From a bacterium (GTDB lineage Bacteria; Patescibacteriota; Microgenomatia; Daviesbacterales; UBA10151): a stretch of DNA of 53,792 nt. The DNA lies in assembly GCA_030647265.1 (NCBI GenBank), contig JAUSJM010000013.1, positions 1-53,792 on the forward strand, given 5' to 3'. The translations under genes were made by a program, and so were the position numbers. The notes beneath the pieces were generated by a model. That model was not told the origin of the DNA. It saw only the letters and a list, made by a program, of their open reading frames with translations, and did no database searches. Of this stretch, positions 9,794 to 19,037 are shown one piece after another. Every line of letters begins with the position of its first letter. Position 1 is the stretch's first letter.

Positions 9794-12700
9794 ATGGATA
9801 ACACAGTAGAGATTGGAACTGGAATACCTACTACCGAGGCAAGTAGGACTGCAGAGAAGCGTGAAACTCGGGAACAAGTTGTGGAGGCGTTAAATGCCTC
9901 CTATGCTGTTTTGGAAAAAGTTCCTGAAGATAAATTAACCCCAAAAGAACAAGCAGCCCGAGAATTGATCCGTGGAGCCAAGGCTAAAACAATCGACCAA
10001 GACAGATTTTATTATCTTAATCATTTTAAGGACGAGCAGGGCCACGAGTATCGTCAACGGGAATACATGCCGGTTGACGAACTGATTGATTTTTTAACCG
10101 AACAGATTAAAAGCGATAAGCTTTCCGAGGATGAGGTGAACCAGTACCAAGATTACCGTGGCATCCTTATTAGAAACAGTAAGTCTTATTACCGAATTCC
10201 CAACCGAACCCAACGAGCACGTCTAAATGCCAGGGTAAAACAAGAATACGACAGGATACAAGTTGATCCGAGGCTCACAACAGGCAATCCTCAAGAGGAC
10301 TATTTCCAAGCCTCCCAAACTATTACTAAACGCCGGGAACTTGTACCTCCACCTAAACAAAAAGAGAAACAGCAAGAGGATCAGCATCATCAAGATAACC
10401 AGCATGATGACGGAAGTACTGTTCAGGAAATTCGCCGGGATTTTGTGATTGCCAGACGGGACGTCGATATTCGAAAGCGCGCAGCTGAGCTTGCCGAAGA
10501 GCAACTTAGAGGTGAGATGCGTCGAGGGAGTGCCTTTAATCCATTAAATTGGCCAAGAAAGATCCGCTTAAGAATCCTCGAAGAATATTACCGCCAACAA
10601 TATATAGGTAGAGCTGAAAGCGCGATGATTGCCAATAACAACTCTTACCTAGATATGGACGTTGTGCATAACGCCATGAAGAATGCCAATGAAAATATTG
10701 ATAGGGAGAGAGTAGCCGGACGATCCAAGGTAGAGCAAATTAAAACCCAGGCTCAAGAGGGAATTAACCTTGAAGGGACCACTCTTCGTGAAGCAACCGG
10801 AGCCCTCAAGGAATCCATCATGAGTGACATTATCAGGCCGATTGTAAACGGCGCCGACAGCCCTCTTCTTGGTGCACAAATTCAAAATGCGGCTGATGTA
10901 CAAAGAGTTCTAAGAGCCTTTGTCGAGCAACACCAAAATAATCCTGATGTCCAAGCTATTTTTGGTAGAGATGCCACACAATTTGGGAGACTGGCAAATT
11001 ATTTTGCTTCTGATATCTTAGAAACAGCTGAGGCAGTTCGAGCAGACTTAGCTGCTCACAAATATGCCATAGAACAACTAAACGAGGTTGTTAGAATCCA
11101 ACTGGCCAACACCAGTTGGGCAGCCGAGACTCAAGCCAACTTTAATCAGGTAGACCGGGCTGTAGCTTGGGCAGAAAGACACAGGCTAACAGGAATTTTA
11201 ATTAACCCCGCCACTATCGGAATTGCCTTTTCTTTGGGTACCTATGGATTAATGCGTGCAGCAAACATGGGTGCCAAAGCTATGGTCTGGGTTCCCGGAG
11301 CAGGGATGCTTGCAGGAGGACTTTTTGCTGCTTTCCGCCGAAATTATGATCTCAAAGTCGACAGAGCTTCTTATCAGGTAGAAAATGTTGCCTATAATGC
11401 TCAATTTGATTCCAACACCGCCCACCGACGAGAAGCGCTGCAAAGATATGATTACAATGTCGCCTCAGTAAATGAACTCTTAAATGGCGGCGGGCAGGAA
11501 ATGCTTACCACCACAGACCGTAGGTCAATGCAGGAATTACTGGCGGCTGATTTGACTGTCGCAGCGAACCAAGAAGCGCTGACCCGCCGAATGACTGAGA
11601 TTAGGACACGTCTTGATTTTTCTGCCCGTGAGAAAGTTGATTTAATTAAGTTTACAGGAGGACGTCCAGATGTTTATGGCCGAACCTTGGTAGAACAAGG
11701 CCGGCTAGAGTTAGTCAAAGCCATAGTTCAAAGTACCAAAGCTTTAAGAGATGCTGGTCTTTCGGAAGTTGATATTACGGCACTGTCTAATCGCTTTTCC
11801 GGAGAGTGGAGCAATCGTTTTACTAAAAACCGTGAGCAACAGGACCGGGCATTTGCTCACTACAGATTAAGAAATGCTATCGGAGCGGGAGTTTTCGCAG
11901 GTGTTGCAGGATTTGCCGGGGGACTAATTACTCAAGAAGCTTGGGCCCAAATAGGCAGACACGTCTTTAATCAGCAAATCGGGGATACGGTACTGGAGAA
12001 ACTGACCAAGGGAGATCTTTCCTGGAATCCCTTGGACTGGATGAACCCAACCAGAGCCCAAGGATTTGCTTCGGATACCGCTAAAGAGCTTTATAACCAC
12101 CCTGGAAATACTCCAATTAGCCACGATCTAACCATGCGCACCTTCTTTGATCAAAGCACAGGAGAACACAAAGTAGACTTCCTTGATACCAACCAGCACC
12201 AAATAACTGGGCCACCCATGCATCTTACCCCAGATGGTCATATTATTACCTCCGGAGATGTTAGTAACCTTCCTTCTAATGTTAGACAATTTGTGGAAGG
12301 ATCAGGATGGCAAAATCATGCTTATACCAATCCAGATTTGAATATTCATGAAAAAATTCAGGATTATATAAGTGGGAACCAACATGAAATCTTTACCCAT
12401 GGCAATACAATCATTAATTTAGACGCACCAAATCACACCATTGCCATTGAGGACTGGCCAACCAAAACCATCGCTCATGGAATAATTAATCCTGACGGCA
12501 GCTTTACTTTTGATAAAGCCAACCCTGAAAATGCCAACATTGACTGGACTGTATTCACCGACCGTCTTCATAATGAAGCTTGGGGAATTCATACTGAAAT
12601 CATTAACTCTCAAGCTTCGGGAGGAACAGTTTTGGACCAGCTCCTTAGCCAAAACCCAGATGCCCTAAAAACCCGAGGCATTATTGAAACTGATCAGTTT

Positions 12701-15403
12701 AAAAAGACCTGGAACTTTCATGTCCTGCGACCAGATATTGTTTCAGCAACAGGAAATCACACCCATAATGAATTAACTTTGCACCTGGGAGGAGAATACC
12801 AAGTCGGTGTTATGAAAGACGGTCAGGTAATTCCCGGTGACTTACGACACGGTATGGGTAACCCAGGTGAACTAAATTTTGGCGGGGAAATCCACGGAGG
12901 GTTAATCCAATCGCACTTAACAGGAGTTGCGCCAGCTGATGACCCACAACTCGACAGGTTAATCCAGAATAATCATGGACTAAGACTTTCCGATATGGTT
13001 TTTGTGGTCGATCTGACAAATGGTAAGCAAATCATGGTCCCCTCTGATGCTCTTGGTAATGCTAAACTGCCTACAGAGTTGTTTGATCCCTCAAACGGTC
13101 ACCTGCGAGGTGTCGAGTCTATTGCCTCAGCCTTCCTGGAAAAACAGGATGGTACATTGCTTAAAGCAGGTGACTTAGTAAATTCCGGACAAGTCCCCGG
13201 AGGCACCATACTTCATTCACTAACCTCTGAGCGCTTTTTACCAGGTGAGGTACCACCTCTTCCTCCGGTAACTCATGAAATTATCAATATAGACCCACCA
13301 AATGCCACAGAGTTTACTCCGCCGCCGCCAACTGAACTTGCACCTCCACCGATTATTCCCATACCCTTTGCCCCCAGACATCCCTTGGAACCTATAGACA
13401 GGAGAATTATTATTTATTACCCAGGAGGTGAACCTACCGCAGAAGAAAGGTCGTTTTACGAACAAAGAAGATCTCCAAGATTAAATTCTAACCCTCAGGG
13501 AACACTAAATGCCAATGAGGAGATTGATTGGTATTTATCACAACAATCACCGGAATATAAACAAGAGTTGGAAAGAATGAATAGTACTATCGGTGAACCA
13601 ATGACCAGTGAATGTAGGGTAGCTGTTTGTATTGCAGCAGCATCACACCAAGAAGGAAAGAATATCTATAAAACACTGCTTCAATATACTGATCAACGAG
13701 ATTCTAAGGGTAACTTAATCGATCCAGGTAAATACGAAATCATTCTTTTTTTGAATAGACCAGACGGTACCACTCCAGATAATACCGCTTCAGAAGTTAA
13801 GAAGTTTCAAAGAGAGCATCCGGAGATTAAGGCTCGGATAATTGAAAAAGTCTTTCCTGCTCGTCAGCCAATGGGAATAATCTCTAAGTATGTTGCCGAC
13901 ATGGCACTACTCCGATCAAGGAAAAGAACCAACCCAATTCATGCGGATCTAATTATGGCCACCAATGATGCTGATGCTGAGCTTGTCTCTAAGGGTTATA
14001 TCAATGCCATCATCCGCGATTACGAGAATCCCCAAAAAAAGCATATCGACGCCGCCTTGGGCAAAATTGATTGGGATCCTGAATCGTTTATTCAATACCC
14101 AGGATTCCATGTCGCTAATCGCTTCATTCAGTATATTGATGCCACCATACGACATTCACCAAGTAAAAGGGCTATCGGTTCATCTGGAGCTAACTTCACC
14201 ATGAAATCTTCTATCTATGCGGCTATTGGCGGATACATTGAAGATCACGGCGCCGGTCAAGATGTCGATCTTTCCAAAATGATTAAGGATGGAAGACGTC
14301 CTAGAAATGGAGGCTTAACAAAAGATAATTTTCCCATTGATTACATTAATCCTGCATGGATTGTGACAAATCCAAGGAGGGGCGTAAGTTATTACCGTCA
14401 AGGTAGGCCTATTGTTCGTCAATGGAGTGACTTTGATTCCCGTCAGGGAATCCGAGAAAATGATTGGCGTTCAAAAACTGTAGCTGCAGAATCTATAGAT
14501 ACTATGGATATTGAGCATCTGCAAAACGATATCAACGCTACAATTGAAGACTACGGAGTAGGAGTAAACTCTGACAATGTAAAGAGGGCTCTCGGTTTCC
14601 TCAACATCAAATATAAAGTAGAAAGCGGTAAAGTTATCCTGATTGATATTTCTAAATTGAAAGAAGACTTAAGAGAGTACGCTAGAGAGAGTAGGAACCG
14701 AATTAATGAACTTAAAAATCAAAAGCTAACAGGAGGGACCATTCCAACTCCAGCTGTAAGCTCTGGACGTGCTGGCAGGAGATCAACAAGTACAGCCAGA
14801 ACCCCAACACCTTCTCCCATAGTTATACCTTCTGCATCACCAACTCCAGTAGCTACAGTTATAACCCCAACCATAGCTCCAGCTGTTCAGCCAACAACTA
14901 CCATACAACCAATAACGGTAGAAGCAACTCGCCCCCAACCCGAAGCCTTACCTGCCCGGATAGATAGAGAACTTGCCGAAAGTCCCAACCCTACTGCCAG
15001 TCCCAAGGCTACTCCTCAAGAGGTAGTTAATTATTTAAAAACTATTCCGTTGGGTTCAGGCGCGCATATTGAAGAACTGATTCCACGTATGGATAACGGT
15101 CAACTTTTTCTAAGCGGAAAAATACCAGTTAAAAAATTTGGTGCTCCCGTGGGCAGTGCAAAATTTAATATTAGGATCGATAACAATCCCACTGGAGGAG
15201 TTTCAGTTATCCCACTGCAAATGGAGCTAACAGGCGCTGTAGTGTTAAAAAGAGCGGAGATTGATAATGCTATCTCCAATATCAACACGTTAATCACAGC
15301 TCAGCTTAATAAGCAAATTAGCGACAAATCCTGGGAAGCAACTGGCTTTCATATAGCCGGAGATGAATTGGCTTTTGACTTCAGAAAGAAACCTACTCCA
15401 TAA
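9794..15403 (+). CDS. Giant membrane-associated protein with embedded GT2 glycosyltransferase domain
   Basis: 1869 residues. Visible layout: a charged helical region (1-460); hydrophobic pair (about 465-515, TIGIAFSLGTYGLM and MLAGGLFAAF); more helices; a third hydrophobic stretch (about 695-716, GAGVFAGVAGFAGGLI); a beta-rich, Asn/His-rich region (720-1150); a Pro-rich linker (1153-1199); a GT-A glycosyltransferase domain (about 1272-1547); a helical stretch; a Ser/Thr/Pro linker (1650-1740); and an alpha/beta C-terminal domain. The GT marks are VAVCIAAASHQEG, a DxD (NDADAE, D1392 and D1394) and GSSGANFTMKSSIYAAIGGY. No signal peptide is visible. I know no described family with this order. 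Probably an envelope-linked sugar transferase; substrate unknown. Confidence 0.8.
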   Translation: MDNTVEIGTGIPTTEASRTAEKRETREQVVEALNASYAVLEKVPEDKLTPKEQAARELIRGAKAKTIDQDRFYYLNHFKDEQGHEYRQREYMPVDELIDFLTEQIKSDKLSEDEVNQYQDYRGILIRNSKSYYRIPNRTQRARLNARVKQEYDRIQVDPRLTTGNPQEDYFQASQTITKRRELVPPPKQKEKQQEDQHHQDNQHDDGSTVQEIRRDFVIARRDVDIRKRAAELAEEQLRGEMRRGSAFNPLNWPRKIRLRILEEYYRQQYIGRAESAMIANNNSYLDMDVVHNAMKNANENIDRERVAGRSKVEQIKTQAQEGINLEGTTLREATGALKESIMSDIIRPIVNGADSPLLGAQIQNAADVQRVLRAFVEQHQNNPDVQAIFGRDATQFGRLANYFASDILETAEAVRADLAAHKYAIEQLNEVVRIQLANTSWAAETQANFNQVDRAVAWAERHRLTGILINPATIGIAFSLGTYGLMRAANMGAKAMVWVPGAGMLAGGLFAAFRRNYDLKVDRASYQVENVAYNAQFDSNTAHRREALQRYDYNVASVNELLNGGGQEMLTTTDRRSMQELLAADLTVAANQEALTRRMTEIRTRLDFSAREKVDLIKFTGGRPDVYGRTLVEQGRLELVKAIVQSTKALRDAGLSEVDITALSNRFSGEWSNRFTKNREQQDRAFAHYRLRNAIGAGVFAGVAGFAGGLITQEAWAQIGRHVFNQQIGDTVLEKLTKGDLSWNPLDWMNPTRAQGFASDTAKELYNHPGNTPISHDLTMRTFFDQSTGEHKVDFLDTNQHQITGPPMHLTPDGHIITSGDVSNLPSNVRQFVEGSGWQNHAYTNPDLNIHEKIQDYISGNQHEIFTHGNTIINLDAPNHTIAIEDWPTKTIAHGIINPDGSFTFDKANPENANIDWTVFTDRLHNEAWGIHTEIINSQASGGTVLDQLLSQNPDALKTRGIIETDQFKKTWNFHVLRPDIVSATGNHTHNELTLHLGGEYQVGVMKDGQVIPGDLRHGMGNPGELNFGGEIHGGLIQSHLTGVAPADDPQLDRLIQNNHGLRLSDMVFVVDLTNGKQIMVPSDALGNAKLPTELFDPSNGHLRGVESIASAFLEKQDGTLLKAGDLVNSGQVPGGTILHSLTSERFLPGEVPPLPPVTHEIINIDPPNATEFTPPPPTELAPPPIIPIPFAPRHPLEPIDRRIIIYYPGGEPTAEERSFYEQRRSPRLNSNPQGTLNANEEIDWYLSQQSPEYKQELERMNSTIGEPMTSECRVAVCIAAASHQEGKNIYKTLLQYTDQRDSKGNLIDPGKYEIILFLNRPDGTTPDNTASEVKKFQREHPEIKARIIEKVFPARQPMGIISKYVADMALLRSRKRTNPIHADLIMATNDADAELVSKGYINAIIRDYENPQKKHIDAALGKIDWDPESFIQYPGFHVANRFIQYIDATIRHSPSKRAIGSSGANFTMKSSIYAAIGGYIEDHGAGQDVDLSKMIKDGRRPRNGGLTKDNFPIDYINPAWIVTNPRRGVSYYRQGRPIVRQWSDFDSRQGIRENDWRSKTVAAESIDTMDIEHLQNDINATIEDYGVGVNSDNVKRALGFLNIKYKVESGKVILIDISKLKEDLREYARESRNRINELKNQKLTGGTIPTPAVSSGRAGRRSTSTARTPTPSPIVIPSASPTPVATVITPTIAPAVQPTTTIQPITVEATRPQPEALPARIDRELAESPNPTASPKATPQEVVNYLKTIPLGSGAHIEELIPRMDNGQLFLSGKIPVKKFGAPVGSAKFNIRIDNNPTGGVSVIPLQMELTGAVVLKRAEIDNAISNINTLITAQLNKQISDKSWEATGFHIAGDELAFDFRKKPTP

Positions 15404-15434
15404 CTTGATATAAGCAAAGCTTGAAAACTTCGTT

Positions 15435-15440
15435 TATAAT
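15435..15440 (+). promoter_or_regulatory. -10 element of recG (leaderless)
   Basis: Perfect TATAAT, 7 bases before the ATG at 15448. It decides that ATG over the in-frame TTG at 15421. Confidence 0.6.
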
Positions 15441-15447
15441 TCCTTCT

Positions 15448-16098
15448 ATGGAGTTAACCACATCCTTGAAATATCTTTCTGGAGTAGGGCCTGCTATAGC
15501 TAAGAGATTAGAAAGGCTAGAACTTTTTACTGTAGAAGATTTAATTAATCATTACCCCTTCAGGTATGATGATTTTTCTAAGATCTCTAAAATCTCTGAA
15601 GCTAAATTTGGTGACACTGTAACTTTTAAAGGTGATGTCTGGGCCATCAAAAATACTTATACCAGATTCAGAAGAGTTCTTACCAAAGCCACCTTAAATG
15701 ATGGAAGTGGCTCTATCGAGCTGGTGTGGTTTAACCAACCCTGGCTTATAAAGAATTTAAAAGTTGGTGATAAGATCCAAGTTTCAGCCAAAGTAGACCG
15801 TTCTGGTTCAAAACTTACCCTCGTTTCTCCAGAATGGGAGAAAGTAACACCAACTCCCGAGGTTGAGGATTTTAAACCTCGGGAGTTAGGTCTCCATACC
15901 GGAAGATTGGTTCCCATCTATCCGGAAACTTATGGCATCAACTCCAAGTGGCTTCGCATAAAGATCGCCGCAGTTTTACCCCACGCCTTACCTCAAATTG
16001 AAGATCCTATACCGGACTTTATTCAGCAGAACCTACTACCACTTTCCAAGGCCATAGAACAAATTCATTTTCCCCAAAAATTTGATCAATCTAAATAA
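15448..16098 (+). CDS. recG: RecG helicase, N-terminal part (ends at an in-frame TAA)
   Basis: RecG is a branch-migration helicase for stalled forks. These 216 residues are the wedge domain: YLSGVGPAIAKRLERLELFT, NHYPFRYDDF, and an OB fold with TFKGDVWAIKN and ATLNDGSGSIELVWFNQPW. The frame stops at TAA (16096-16098), but reading on in the same frame gives AKKRLSCDELFYIQLATQ, the conserved RecG A-[RK]-x-RL-x-x-[DE]EL block, and runs without a break into the helicase part. So this is one gene with a single nonsense codon. A perfect 13-base inverted repeat (15852-15887) is inserted in the OB-fold region. Confidence 0.85.
   Translation: MELTTSLKYLSGVGPAIAKRLERLELFTVEDLINHYPFRYDDFSKISKISEAKFGDTVTFKGDVWAIKNTYTRFRRVLTKATLNDGSGSIELVWFNQPWLIKNLKVGDKIQVSAKVDRSGSKLTLVSPEWEKVTPTPEVEDFKPRELGLHTGRLVPIYPETYGINSKWLRIKIAAVLPHALPQIEDPIPDFIQQNLLPLSKAIEQIHFPQKFDQSK
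15852..15887. repeat. Palindromic element inside recG
   Basis: Arms AACTCCCGAGGTT (15852-15864) and AACCTCGGGAGTT (15875-15887) are perfectly complementary, with a 10-base loop. It is translated as TPEVEDFKPREL. The CCCGAGGTT core also occurs in the palindromes at 24268 and 53231 beside RAYT 2 and RAYT 3. Confidence 0.85.
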
Positions 16099-16221
16099 GC
16101 TAAAAAACGACTATCTTGTGATGAACTATTCTATATCCAGCTAGCTACTCAAAAGACAAAATTACAGTGGAGAGAAAAGAAACTTACCCATTCTTTTGAA
16201 GTAGAGAAGGATTCTCTTGAC

Positions 16222-17487
16222 ATGTTTTTTACCAGCTTATCATTTCAGCTTACTGATGCCCAAAAAAGAGTTATTCAGGAGGTAGTTACAGACTTATCCA
16301 AAAATTTCCCCATGAACCGCTTAGTTCAGGGAGAGGTTGGTTCAGGAAAAACTGTGGTGGCAGCAGCCGTTATTTACTTAGCACACTTAAACAATCTTAA
16401 ATCGATCATTATGGCTCCCACCGAAATTTTAGCTTTCCAGCATTTTGATACTCTATCCAGATTACTGGAACCTTTTGGAATCAAGGTGGGAATTTATACC
16501 GGAAGCAGGAAAAGGATACAGGGTGATCTTCCTGTTATTGTTGGCACCCATGCCCTTCTTTCTAAAAGCCTGGAGCTTAATAACGTTGGGCTGGTGGTTG
16601 TTGATGAGCAACAAAGATTTGGAGTAGAGCAAAGGACTCTTCTTAGAGACAAAGCAGAGTCTCCTCATTTTTTAACAATGACTGCTACCCCTATTCCCAG
16701 AACTGTGGCTTTAACCATCTATGGTGATCTGGATCTCTCAGTGATTGATCAGATGCCGGTGGGGAGAAAAGTTGTTCGAACATATTTTGTCCCCCAAAGC
16801 AAGAGATTGGATGCCTATAAATTTATTGAAAACCATATCAAGGAAGAGGAACAAGCTTACATTATTACCCCGTTGATAGAAGAATCAGAAACTCAAGCTT
16901 CGGCTAAAGCTGCCAAGGTAGAATACGAAAGGTTGCAAAAGCAGGTTTTTCCCAAATTAAGACTAGGACTTTTACACGGAAGACTTAAGTCTAAGGAAAA
17001 AGAGGCGGCTATTAATGCTTTTAAAAACCACGAGCTGGATATTCTAGTCTCTACTTCAGTTGTAGAGGTGGGAGTTGACGTACCCAACGCCACTATAATG
17101 GTTATTGAGGGAGGTGAGAGGTTTGGGCTAGCTCAACTACACCAGCTCAGAGGGAGGGTAGGAAGGGGAGAACAACAATCATACGCTTTTCTCTTCACGG
17201 AAGAAGAAAACCCTCAAGTGATAAACCGTCTGAAAAACCTGGAAAGGATTCATGATGGCCTCACTTTATCTGAGTTAGACCTGAAAATTCGGGGCGGGGG
17301 AGAGGTTTTCGGCACCGCCCAAAGCGGTCGTTGGAATCTGAAAATAGCCTCGCTTTCCAATCTCTCGCTGATTGAAAAAACTAGAGCTGCAGCCCAAAAA
17401 GTTTTGGCTCAAGATCCTAGCCTTGACAAATACCCCAATCTTAAGCGAAAATTGTCTAGCTTGGCGCCGGAAGTCTCACCGGACTAA
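16222..17487 (+). CDS. recG: RecG helicase, motor part (after the in-frame TAA)
   Basis: 421 residues carrying the complete helicase motor: FQLTDAQKRVIQEV (Q-motif region), Walker A GEVGSGKTVVA, motif II DEQQRFGVEQR, motif III TMTATPIPRT, and motifs V-VI VSTSVVEVGVDVPNA and LRGRVGRGEQQSYAF, then a C-terminal QSGR-type tail. In this reading it would start at the ATG at 16222, but the frame is open back to the TAA at 16096, and residues between are RecG-like. Either the locus is a recent pseudogene, or the TAA is read through or is an assembly error, or the two halves work as separate chains. rpmF follows after 13 bases. Confidence 0.85.
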   Translation: MFFTSLSFQLTDAQKRVIQEVVTDLSKNFPMNRLVQGEVGSGKTVVAAAVIYLAHLNNLKSIIMAPTEILAFQHFDTLSRLLEPFGIKVGIYTGSRKRIQGDLPVIVGTHALLSKSLELNNVGLVVVDEQQRFGVEQRTLLRDKAESPHFLTMTATPIPRTVALTIYGDLDLSVIDQMPVGRKVVRTYFVPQSKRLDAYKFIENHIKEEEQAYIITPLIEESETQASAKAAKVEYERLQKQVFPKLRLGLLHGRLKSKEKEAAINAFKNHELDILVSTSVVEVGVDVPNATIMVIEGGERFGLAQLHQLRGRVGRGEQQSYAFLFTEEENPQVINRLKNLERIHDGLTLSELDLKIRGGGEVFGTAQSGRWNLKIASLSNLSLIEKTRAAAQKVLAQDPSLDKYPNLKRKLSSLAPEVSPD

Positions 17488-17500
17488 GGTCAAAAAAATT

Positions 17501-17701
17501 ATGCCGCAAGAACCGAAAAAAAAACACAGCAAAGCCAGAAAACGCACCAGACGGGCCTCTATCAAGCTGGAGGAGATGGGGTTGTTACGCTGTAAAAACT
17601 GCCAGGAACTAACCATTCCGCATCAGGTTTGTAAAAATTGCGGTTATTATGGCGGTAAGGCAGTCTTAGCAAAAGTAAAGACCAAGGTTACCAGAGCTTA
17701 A
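17501..17701 (+). CDS. rpmF: 50S ribosomal protein L32
   Basis: 66 residues. Basic N-terminus PKKKHSKARKRTRRA, then a zinc ribbon with two CxxC pairs (LLRCKNCQEL and VCKNCGYYGG), the zinc-binding form of L32. The ATG at 17501 gives the family start; a longer overlapping frame is spurious. It lies between recG and nusB in one transcription direction. Confidence 0.93.
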   Translation: MPQEPKKKHSKARKRTRRASIKLEEMGLLRCKNCQELTIPHQVCKNCGYYGGKAVLAKVKTKVTRA

Positions 17702-17712
17702 GAAGGTTAATA

Positions 17713-18081
17713 GTGAAAACTTCCCGTGATGTCAGGCATAAGAGGAGAAAACATGTTGTCCAAGATCTCTTTGCTTGGGGATTTTCTCCGCAGCAGGAAC
17801 CTAAACTGCAACAAAGCAAAGAGGTCGTTGCTAATTTGTCTGTCATCGACAAGGAGATTGTTCAAGCTGCACCGGAATGGCCTCTTACCCAAATTAACCG
17901 CATTGATTTAAGTATCTTGCGTTTAGCAGTTTTTGAGTTAATAATTAAAAAAGACGCGCCTTTTAAGGTGGTGGTGGATGAGGCAGTAGAACTGGCTAAA
18001 GAGTTTGGTTCAGAATCCAGCTCTGCCTTTATAAATGGAGTTTTAGGAAAAGTAATTGAGAACAATAAACTAAACAAATAA
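17713..18081 (+). CDS. nusB: Transcription antitermination factor NusB
   Basis: NusB binds boxA RNA with S10 in rRNA antitermination. 122 residues with the family pattern RRKHVVQDLFAWGF at the N-terminus and INRIDLSILRLAVFELI, PFKVVVDEAVELAKEFG and SSAFINGVLGKV in the C-terminal half. The start is a GTG at 17713, 11 bases after rpmF. The ACP-like gene follows after one base. Confidence 0.93.
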   Translation: MKTSRDVRHKRRKHVVQDLFAWGFSPQQEPKLQQSKEVVANLSVIDKEIVQAAPEWPLTQINRIDLSILRLAVFELIIKKDAPFKVVVDEAVELAKEFGSESSSAFINGVLGKVIENNKLNK

Positions 18082-18082
18082 T

Positions 18083-18319
18083 ATGGCTGATCAACAACAA
18101 ATTATTGAAGCAATAGCGGAAAACCTGACTCTACCGGTGGCAGATATTGATATGGAAGCTTCACTTCAGGATGACATGGGACTAAACCCGGTAGAAGTGG
18201 CAGACCTTTTGGCAGATTTAGCCCACCGCTTTAAGATTGTTTTTGAACCGGGAGAGGTTGAACATATCAAGACCATTGGTGATGTAGTGGAGCTTATTGA
18301 AGACAAATCCCTGGAGTAA
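18083..18319 (+). CDS. Acyl-carrier-protein-like protein lacking the phosphopantetheine serine
   Basis: 78 residues aligning end to end with AcpP: a four-helix acidic fold with DMEASLQDDMGLNPVEVADL where normal ACPs have a DSL motif. The serine that carries 4'-phosphopantetheine (Ser36 in E. coli) is Pro36 here, with Asn35 before it. It cannot carry an acyl chain in the usual way. It sits directly before rnc, the classical acpP-rnc order, so it is likely a descendant of true acpP kept for another role. Fatty-acid synthesis is generally missing in such genomes. A structural or RNase III-related role is possible but unproven. Confidence 0.85.
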   Translation: MADQQQIIEAIAENLTLPVADIDMEASLQDDMGLNPVEVADLLADLAHRFKIVFEPGEVEHIKTIGDVVELIEDKSLE

Positions 18320-18338: not shown

Positions 18339-19037
18339 ATGAATGATGAATTTGTACAGATATTAAATAACCTCCGTTTAAAGCCAAACAACCTTTCTTT
18401 TTATCGGACAGCCTTTACTCACCGTTCTTTTCTTAATGAAGCCAAAGAGGTTAAAGAATCCAATGAGAGGCTGGAGTTTTTAGGCGATGCCATCTTGTCT
18501 TTTATCACTTCCGGTTTTCTTTTCCACAAAAGGGCCCACGATGCGGAAGGGGACCTCACAAATTTACGCTCTTATATTGTTAAAACGGAAAGTTTAGCCC
18601 GCGTCTCTCAAAAGTTGTCCTTAGGAAAATTTCTCCGCATGTCCAAAGGAGAGGAGTTTTCCGGAGGACGGCAAAACCCCCAAATATTGGCCAACACTTA
18701 TGAGGCTCTCTTGGGGGCGATCTTTATGGATTTGGGGATTGAAGCAGCTCAAACTTTTATTTACCAGACTCTTTTGCCTCTGTTTGCCACAGAAATTACT
18801 AAAGGTGCTCCCCGGGATCCTAAAAGCGAGTTGCAGGAGATGGTTCAGGAAAAGTTTCAGGTGTCCCCTAAGTATAAGATTATCGGCACAATAGGTCCCG
18901 ACCACGCCAAAAAATTTACCGTGGGTGTATTTGTCAAAGACGAATTACTCGGACGGGGAAGCGGTTCCAGCAAGCAACAGGCTGAAGAAGACTCTGCTAA
19001 AGAGGCTTTAAAAAAACTCACCGAACACCTCACATGA
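18339..19037 (+). CDS. rnc: Ribonuclease III
   Basis: Cuts double-stranded RNA in rRNA and mRNA processing. 232 residues. The catalytic signature is NERLEFLGDAIL (about residues 40-51), with the second acidic site in NTYEALLGAIFMDLG. A C-terminal dsRNA-binding domain starts at DPKSELQEMVQEKF and ends with GSGSSKQQAEEDSAKEALKKL. The ATG at 18339 gives a normal length; the frame is open to a TTG at 18297 inside the ACP-like gene. Its stop overlaps the next start (ATGA). Confidence 0.95.
   Translation: MNDEFVQILNNLRLKPNNLSFYRTAFTHRSFLNEAKEVKESNERLEFLGDAILSFITSGFLFHKRAHDAEGDLTNLRSYIVKTESLARVSQKLSLGKFLRMSKGEEFSGGRQNPQILANTYEALLGAIFMDLGIEAAQTFIYQTLLPLFATEITKGAPRDPKSELQEMVQEKFQVSPKYKIIGTIGPDHAKKFTVGVFVKDELLGRGSGSSKQQAEEDSAKEALKKLTEHLT

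What the first reader, a model, noticed from the sequence alone, without database searches (positions are those of the whole stretch)
18083..18319. ACP-like protein with Ser36 replaced by Pro, kept in front of rnc
The protein aligns with AcpP end to end, and the DSL motif has become NPV. Without the serine no 4'-phosphopantetheine can be attached. The gene has an intact frame and keeps the ancestral acpP-rnc neighbourhood. This suggests a descendant retained for a non-lipid job, perhaps through binding a partner such as RNase III or another co-expressed protein.
Basis: partly seen in the sequence, partly recalled or inferred. Interest (0 to 1): 0.62.

Follow-up and report, generated by a model that had tools for sequence, protein, structure and literature searches.

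The report
Serine-less carrier protein beside RNase III
Many tiny CPR bacteria keep, between the genes for NusB and RNase III, a small protein shaped like the fatty-acid carrier ACP but lacking the serine every working carrier needs, so an old lipid protein has probably been kept for a different, protein-binding job.

Summary
Window 18083..18319 (+) encodes a 78-aa ACP homologue (PF00550, 38.3 bits; predicted ACP fold) with NPV in place of DSL, between nusB and rnc. It is not a private decay. A copy next to both nusB and rnc was read in 149 genomes: 44 of the window's family (titles: Candidatus Daviesbacteria), 79 elsewhere in its class and 26 in other classes of the phylum. Site 36 is Ser in 4 of 149 and the DS pair occurs in 0 of 149. 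ACP domains elsewhere in these genomes are the internal control: 19 of 25 have Ser36. The window's genome has no detectable holo-ACP synthase or ketoacyl synthase. Where the gene is absent, nusB abuts rnc (29 of 30 loci read). In 5 genomes of two families NusB and the ACP-like domain are one open frame. Helix II keeps its acidic residues.

Best reading: a relic of the rpmF-plsX-fab-acpP-rnc cluster, kept as an apo-only protein-binding module, probably for the NusB/RNase III machinery. Loss of the acyl role is well supported; the partner is inferred. Closest precedent: Plasmodium mitochondrial ACP (Ser to Phe), which binds Isd11. My paper searches found no bacterial counterpart.

The parts
18083..18319 (+). 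Serine-less ACP-like protein (called ACP* here), 78 aa; NPV at the DSL site (residues 35-37)
18185..18193 (+). Codons for N35-P36-V37, the site of the DSL motif
   Evidence: sequence; ungapped alignment
17713..18081 (+). nusB, one base upstream of ACP*
   Evidence: PF01029 89.3 bits; TIGR01951 98.6 bits over cut-off 88.35
18339..19037 (+). rnc (RNase III), starting 19 bases after the ACP* stop
   Evidence: TIGR02191 242.9 bits over cut-off 166.25 (run from 18342)
17501..17701 (+). rpmF (ribosomal protein L32-like), remnant of the rpmF-fab-acpP-rnc neighbourhood
   Evidence: translation and synteny; name by recall and by the cluster in PMC5049393
15421..17487 (+). recG, upstream end of the conserved block; interrupted by an in-frame TAA at 16096-16098
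   Evidence: synteny; translation; codon; name by recall

Best explanation
ACP* is the direct descendant of acpP in the ancestral rpmF-plsX-fab-acpP-rnc cluster. After fatty-acid synthesis was lost in CPR ancestors, the fab and plsX genes went, nusB came to lie upstream, and the carrier lost its phosphopantetheine serine but kept its fold and the acidic helix II that ordinary ACPs use to dock on partners. It now works only as apo-protein: a small acidic docking subunit, made together with NusB and RNase III and most likely acting with one of them in rRNA transcription or processing. Shown here: homology, fold, loss of Ser in nearly all copies, fixed neighbourhood, absence of the modifying enzyme in the own genome, natural fusions to NusB. 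Inferred: that it binds a protein, that helix II is the binding face, and that the partner is NusB or RNase III. My confidence is about 0.95 for 'no acyl-carrier role', 0.8 for 'retained by selection as a binding module', and 0.4 for 'partner is NusB or RNase III'.
For: Beside both nusB and rnc, 149 genomes carry the gene; site 36 is P 68, E 26, D 20, A 9, L 5, N 4, S 4, M 3, R 2, T 2, Q 2, G 2, K 1, I 1, and DS occurs in 0 of 149. ACP domains elsewhere in the same sample have Ser36 in 19 of 25 and DS in 17 of 25 (Fisher p 1.2e-16, not corrected for relatedness). AcpS (PF01648) is absent from the own genome and found in 4 of 95 relatives, with the control ringing in 10 of 14 known genomes. Genomes with AcpS still have a non-DSL copy at nusB-rnc (e.g. 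G006). Seven genomes with a DSL domain inside an 832-879 aa ORF all have AcpS on the same contig within about 4 kb. NusB and ACP* form one open frame in 5 of 149: G070 and G085 of one family, G055, G106 and G187 of another; Pfam finds NusB in all three tested and PP-binding over its cut-off in two, 20.3 against 20.8 bits in the third. In G106 and G187 the motif stretch itself is gapped. Helix II is kept: residue 41 is acidic in 134 of 149, residue 38 in 122 of 149, D31 in 127 of 149. The old DSL site reads as a helix start: residue 35 is S/T/D/N/G in 134 of 149, 36 is P/E/D in 114 of 149, 38 is E/D/Q in 131 of 149, with the predicted helix beginning at 36. Near relatives differ less at non-synonymous sites in ACP* (pN 0.15-0.23) than in NusB (0.25-0.33), although synonymous sites are near saturation. 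PMC5049393 (passages) describes the rpmF-plsX-fab-acpP cluster with rnc in diverse bacteria.
Against: The gene is dispensable in many lineages: 29 of 30 loci read from genomes without a match have nusB abutting rnc with nothing between. Ser36 does occur in 4 of 149 (G191, G200, G356, G534), one of which (G534) has AcpS, so a rare modified form is not excluded there. Fusions can arise by loss of a stop codon without functional coupling. No direct binding evidence exists. The mirror-tree favours RNase III over NusB, against the fusions. The presence/absence contrast found no NusB or RNase III columns clearly standing out from RecG. A tree of the domains is unresolved, so descent of every nusB-rnc copy from one Ser-less ancestor is not shown.
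Confidence: 0.55

Rival explanations
1. It is a fading relic with no function: the serine went when fatty-acid synthesis was lost and the small frame survives by chance in a tight operon.
For: Patchy presence: 29 of 30 match-free loci read have lost it cleanly. Site 36 is one of the least constrained positions of the motif region.
Against: Reading frames are intact across the class and in other classes of the phylum; core positions and the helix II acids are conserved; protein divergence among near relatives is no greater than for NusB while synonymous sites are near saturation. No half-decayed copy was seen between nusB and rnc in the loci read, only intact or absent.
Confidence: 0.15
2. It binds a partner outside this operon (for example a cysteine desulfurase, an RNA polymerase or ribosome factor, or a stress enzyme), as ACP does in other systems; the nusB-rnc position is only inherited.
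For: ACPs dock on many unrelated proteins; human Nfs1-Isd11-ACP complexes are among the structural matches. The acpP-rnc neighbourhood is old (PMC5049393), so position alone says little. Neither the presence/absence test nor the tree singled out a partner.
Against: Two families carry NusB-ACP* fusions; 149 genomes keep the gene beside both nusB and rnc, and lineages that lack it lose only it, not its neighbours.
Confidence: 0.3
3. It still carries a group, attached to another residue or by another enzyme, and works in lipid scavenging.
For: Some relatives have ketoacyl-synthase-like genes (10 of 95), AcpS (4 of 95), or an AMP-binding/carrier/acyltransferase protein.
Against: The own genome has neither AcpS nor ketoacyl synthase. 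The window protein has no Ser, Thr, Cys or Tyr in residues 31-50, that is helix II and its start. Where AcpS exists, it often sits beside DSL-bearing carriers elsewhere, and the nusB-rnc copy lacks DSL.
Confidence: 0.04

Closest known systems
Mitochondrial ACP of Plasmodium falciparum (mACP) and other Apicomplexa, PMC8547962 (passages read)
   Same: ACP fold with the Ppant serine replaced (Phe113), in a compartment that lost fatty-acid synthesis and the phosphopantetheine transferase; retained and essential; there shown to bind a protein partner.
   Different: Mitochondrial, bound to Isd11-Nfs1. That paper's BLASTP search for Ser-less ACPs outside Apicomplexa found only Vitrella. ACP* is bacterial, sits in a nusB-rnc operon, is sometimes fused to NusB, mostly carries Pro, Glu or Asp at the site, and has no known partner.
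AcpP of type II fatty-acid synthesis (TIGR00517, PF00550)
   Same: Homologous sequence, same fold, same rnc-side neighbourhood as in diverse bacteria.
   Different: No serine, no modifying enzyme in the own genome, score far below the AcpP cut-off.
rpmF-plsX-fab-acpP-rnc cluster of diverse bacteria, PMC5049393 (passages read)
   Same: rpmF on one side and rnc on the other.
   Different: In the window all fab and plsX genes are gone from the block and nusB lies between rpmF and the ACP gene.
NusB and RNase III (PF01029, TIGR02191)
   Same: Share the operon; NusB is naturally fused to ACP* in 5 genomes.
   Different: No described NusB or RNase III partner with an ACP fold was found in the searches made.

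Membership tests
Functional acyl carrier protein (AcpP) | Sequence match to the carrier domain PF00550 | tested here: met
   38.3 bits, cut-off 20.8
Functional acyl carrier protein (AcpP) | Score over the AcpP equivalog cut-off (TIGR00517) | tested here: not met
   31.1 bits, cut-off 70.45
Functional acyl carrier protein (AcpP) | Four-helix ACP fold | tested here: met
   AlphaFold2 model, Z 13.8 and TM up to 0.88 to solved ACPs
Functional acyl carrier protein (AcpP) | Phosphopantetheine serine in a DSL motif | tested here: not met
   NPV in the window; DS in 0 of 149 copies at this locus
Functional acyl carrier protein (AcpP) | Holo-ACP synthase in the genome | tested here: not met
   PF01648 absent from G000 (92% complete); 4 of 95 relatives
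Functional acyl carrier protein (AcpP) | Fatty-acid synthase genes in the genome | tested here: not met
   PF02801 absent from G000; 10 of 95 relatives. Other fab genes were not searched
Ser-less ACP acting as a protein-binding module (apicomplexan mACP type) | Serine replaced across the lineage, with the fold kept | tested here: met
Ser-less ACP acting as a protein-binding module (apicomplexan mACP type) | Binds an LYR protein (Isd11) | not tested
   No LYR or Isd11 search was made; that LYR proteins are eukaryotic is recalled
Ser-less ACP acting as a protein-binding module (apicomplexan mACP type) | Demonstrated binding to any partner | not testable with these tools
   Needs pull-down or complex prediction

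The most novel reading that the evidence does not exclude
CPR bacteria turned acpP into a dedicated subunit of their rRNA-making machinery: an apo-only ACP fold that docks on NusB and/or RNase III and couples antitermination to rRNA cleavage, a bacterial parallel to the malaria mitochondrial ACP.
Probability: 0.3. Interest if true: 0.82.

Novelty: new variant of a known kind. Interest (0 to 1): 0.63.

Why it matters
CPR genomes are described as lacking the ACP machinery (PMC7242380, passages read), yet many carry an ACP-shaped gene that is easily annotated as an acyl carrier and misread as a lipid pathway remnant. If the protein binds NusB or RNase III, it shows how a metabolic carrier can be turned into a structural part of an RNA machine, and gives a second, independent case of an ACP outliving its chemistry after the malaria mitochondrion. 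The fused NusB-ACP* proteins make the idea directly testable with recombinant protein.

Tried and rejected
Simple decay in one genome: rejected, since the state is shared by the whole family. Misalignment hiding a serine: rejected for the window (no Ser in residues 28-75); for G106 and G187 the motif stretch is gapped and the site is ambiguous. Real carrier with Ser lost by assembly error: rejected, since independent genomes agree. Absence from the one family genome without a match (G014): that genome also gave no RNase III match, so the region is probably missing from the assembly.

Led nowhere: mirror-tree with RecG as control, with partial correlations ACP*-RNase III 0.41-0.49, ACP*-NusB 0.14-0.24, NusB-RNase III 0.11-0.23, suggestive but not specific, since RNase III is a good species-tree proxy; contrast of NusB, RNase III and RecG columns between 110 loci with and 29 without the gene (RecG: 96 and 23), no standing-out patch; maximum-likelihood tree of 69 nusB-rnc copies and 13 Ser-bearing domains, at most 8 of 13 together with support 61; formal dN/dS, spoiled by synonymous saturation.

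Rows dropped or not read: one stop-riddled second match in G023 was not read; 2 of 32 RNase III loci of match-free genomes (G072, G094) were not fetched; G175 (contig ends before rnc) was left out of the 149 and out of the 25. The 149 genomes are not independent (effective number about 79 for the first 138 at 62% identity). The position numbers printed are one too high.

Literature: nine searches gave no description of this gene in their listings; only passages of PMC7242380, PMC4736985, PMC12455944, PMC8547962, PMC4419217 and PMC5049393 were read. Most subscription journals and preprints are not in that library.

Full report
What is there. The open frame at 18083..18319 (+) encodes 78 residues. 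Pfam PF00550 matches over its full length with 38.3 bits against a cut-off of 20.8; 13 NCBIfam models match, all but one of them named acyl carrier proteins, and all below their cut-offs; solved ACPs match without gaps, with N-P-V where they have D-S-L. AlphaFold2 on 35 sequences gives an ACP bundle (pLDDT 82.8, pTM 0.65), confirmed by VIA (Z 13.8, 76 residues, rmsd 1.4) and Foldseek (TM 0.74-0.88 on the query's length among the 50 rows shown). Upstream lie recG, rpmF and nusB, downstream rnc.

Whose genome. The window is contig 1 of a 784,921-base assembly, 92% complete.

How general it is. A single-sequence search of 95 relatives matched 57, including 44 of 45 of the family. In all 57 the gene lies on the same strand between nusB (fused in two) and rnc; rpmF and recG were seen in 55 of 57, the exceptions being L014 and L028, the latter at a contig end. 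None of the 57 has Ser at site 36; in the family it is Pro in 39 of 44, Leu in 3, Ala in 1, Arg in 1. The only family genome without a match (G014) also gave no RNase III match. A profile search matched 111 of 281 genomes of the class and 56 of 379 of the phylum. All matched genomes were then read. 149 genomes hold a copy next to both nusB and rnc: 44 in the family, 79 elsewhere in the class, 26 in other classes of the phylum. One of these (G051) was found only through its rnc locus.

The serine. At this locus Ser36 occurs in 4 of 149 (G191, G200, G356, G534), never preceded by Asp; two further copies (G106, G187) are gapped at the motif. In 25 carrier-domain matches elsewhere in the same sample Ser36 occurs in 19 and D-S in 17. 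So the loss belongs to the locus, not to the organisms. The holo-ACP synthase family PF01648 is absent from the own genome and present in 4 of 95 relatives; in 22 chosen genomes it is present in 8. All seven genomes with a DSL domain inside an 832-879 aa frame that were included have it on the same contig within about 4 kb, and five of these seven also hold a nusB-rnc copy, without DSL in each. The own genome also lacks the ketoacyl synthase domain PF02801, found in 10 of 95 relatives.

Presence and absence. Of the 95 relatives, 63 hold the gene (57, five more, one more), 29 have nusB abutting rnc with no frame between, two loci were not read, and G014 has no rnc match. The gene is thus either intact or cleanly gone, which fits a dispensable but selected function.

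Selection. Between the window and its seven nearest relatives the proportion of non-synonymous differences is 0.15-0.23 for ACP*, 0.25-0.33 for NusB and 0.21-0.28 for RNase III, while synonymous sites are near saturation in all three. In 149 copies residue 41 is acidic in 134, residue 38 in 122, and D31 is kept in 127. The former DSL site looks like a helix start: residue 35 is S, T, D, N or G in 134, residue 36 P, E or D in 114, residue 38 E, D or Q in 131, and the model's helix II begins at residue 36. That Pro and acidic residues favour the first turn of a helix is established knowledge, recalled. I read this as the docking helix being kept and stabilised after its serine was no longer needed; that is inference.

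Fusions. In G070 and G085 (one family) and in G055, G106 and G187 (another) NusB and ACP* share one open frame. Pfam finds NusB in the three tested, and PP-binding at 24.9, 22.9 and 20.3 bits against a cut-off of 20.8. In L047 the last NusB helix runs into the first ACP helix with hardly any linker (sequence); in L122 there is a Met at the join, so a separate start is possible. Fusion in two families suggests that NusB and ACP* can act side by side, but loss of a stop codon between adjacent genes is a simple event.

Which partner. Mirror-tree partial correlations, with RecG as control and subsampled columns, are 0.41-0.49 for ACP*-RNase III, 0.14-0.24 for ACP*-NusB and 0.11-0.23 for NusB-RNase III. 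The contrast of 110 loci with and 29 without the gene shows no NusB or RNase III columns clearly above RecG. The partner therefore stays open between NusB, RNase III and something else.

Comparison with what is known. PMC5049393 (passages) reports the rpmF-plsX-fab-acpP cluster with rnc in diverse bacteria, so the neighbourhood looks like an eroded form of it. PMC7242380 (passages) reports that enzymes that make or need ACP were not identified in its CPR genomes. PMC8547962 (passages) describes the malaria mitochondrial ACP, whose serine became Phe, which binds Isd11-Nfs1 and is essential; its authors' search outside Apicomplexa found only one other Ser-less ACP, in Vitrella. PMC12455944 (passage) reports an acpP transfer into Patescibacteria, which may concern the other, Ser-bearing type. 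ACP* works most like the malaria protein; it is not filed as a functional ACP, because the serine test is not met.

Verdict. It is much more widespread than one genome, and the NusB fusions are a new lead. The partner remains to be shown.

Noticed in passing
window 16096-16098: The recG frame (15421..17487) is interrupted by one in-frame TAA while homologous sequence continues on both sides; real pseudogene, split gene or assembly error not decided.
   Followed up: partly
L137 1829-4324 (G006); similar-length DSL frames in G152, G164, G096, G211, G534, G526: An 832-aa protein with AMP-binding, carrier (DSL) and acyltransferase domains, with AcpS nearby: perhaps a self-contained acyl activation and transfer module for scavenged fatty acids in some CPR. 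Only L137 was tested for domains.
   Followed up: partly
G081 (L128), G129 (L104), G378 (L194), G335 (L207), G340 (L218), G495 (L220), G394 (L223), G305 (L224): Free-standing DSL-bearing ACP frames in genomes where PF01648 finds no holo-ACP synthase (0 of these 8).
   Followed up: no
window 17713-18081: NusB matches only positions 53-132 of the 133-position Pfam model; the N-terminal part is diverged, and the three fusions tested also match only from about position 44-51.
   Followed up: no
G004, G010, G013, G014, G019, G020, G022, G029, G038, G043: Ketoacyl-synthase C-terminal domains in 10 of 95 relatives, 9 of them without AcpS; role unknown.
   Followed up: no
window 9794-15403: A single 1869-aa frame upstream of recG, not analysed.
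   Followed up: no
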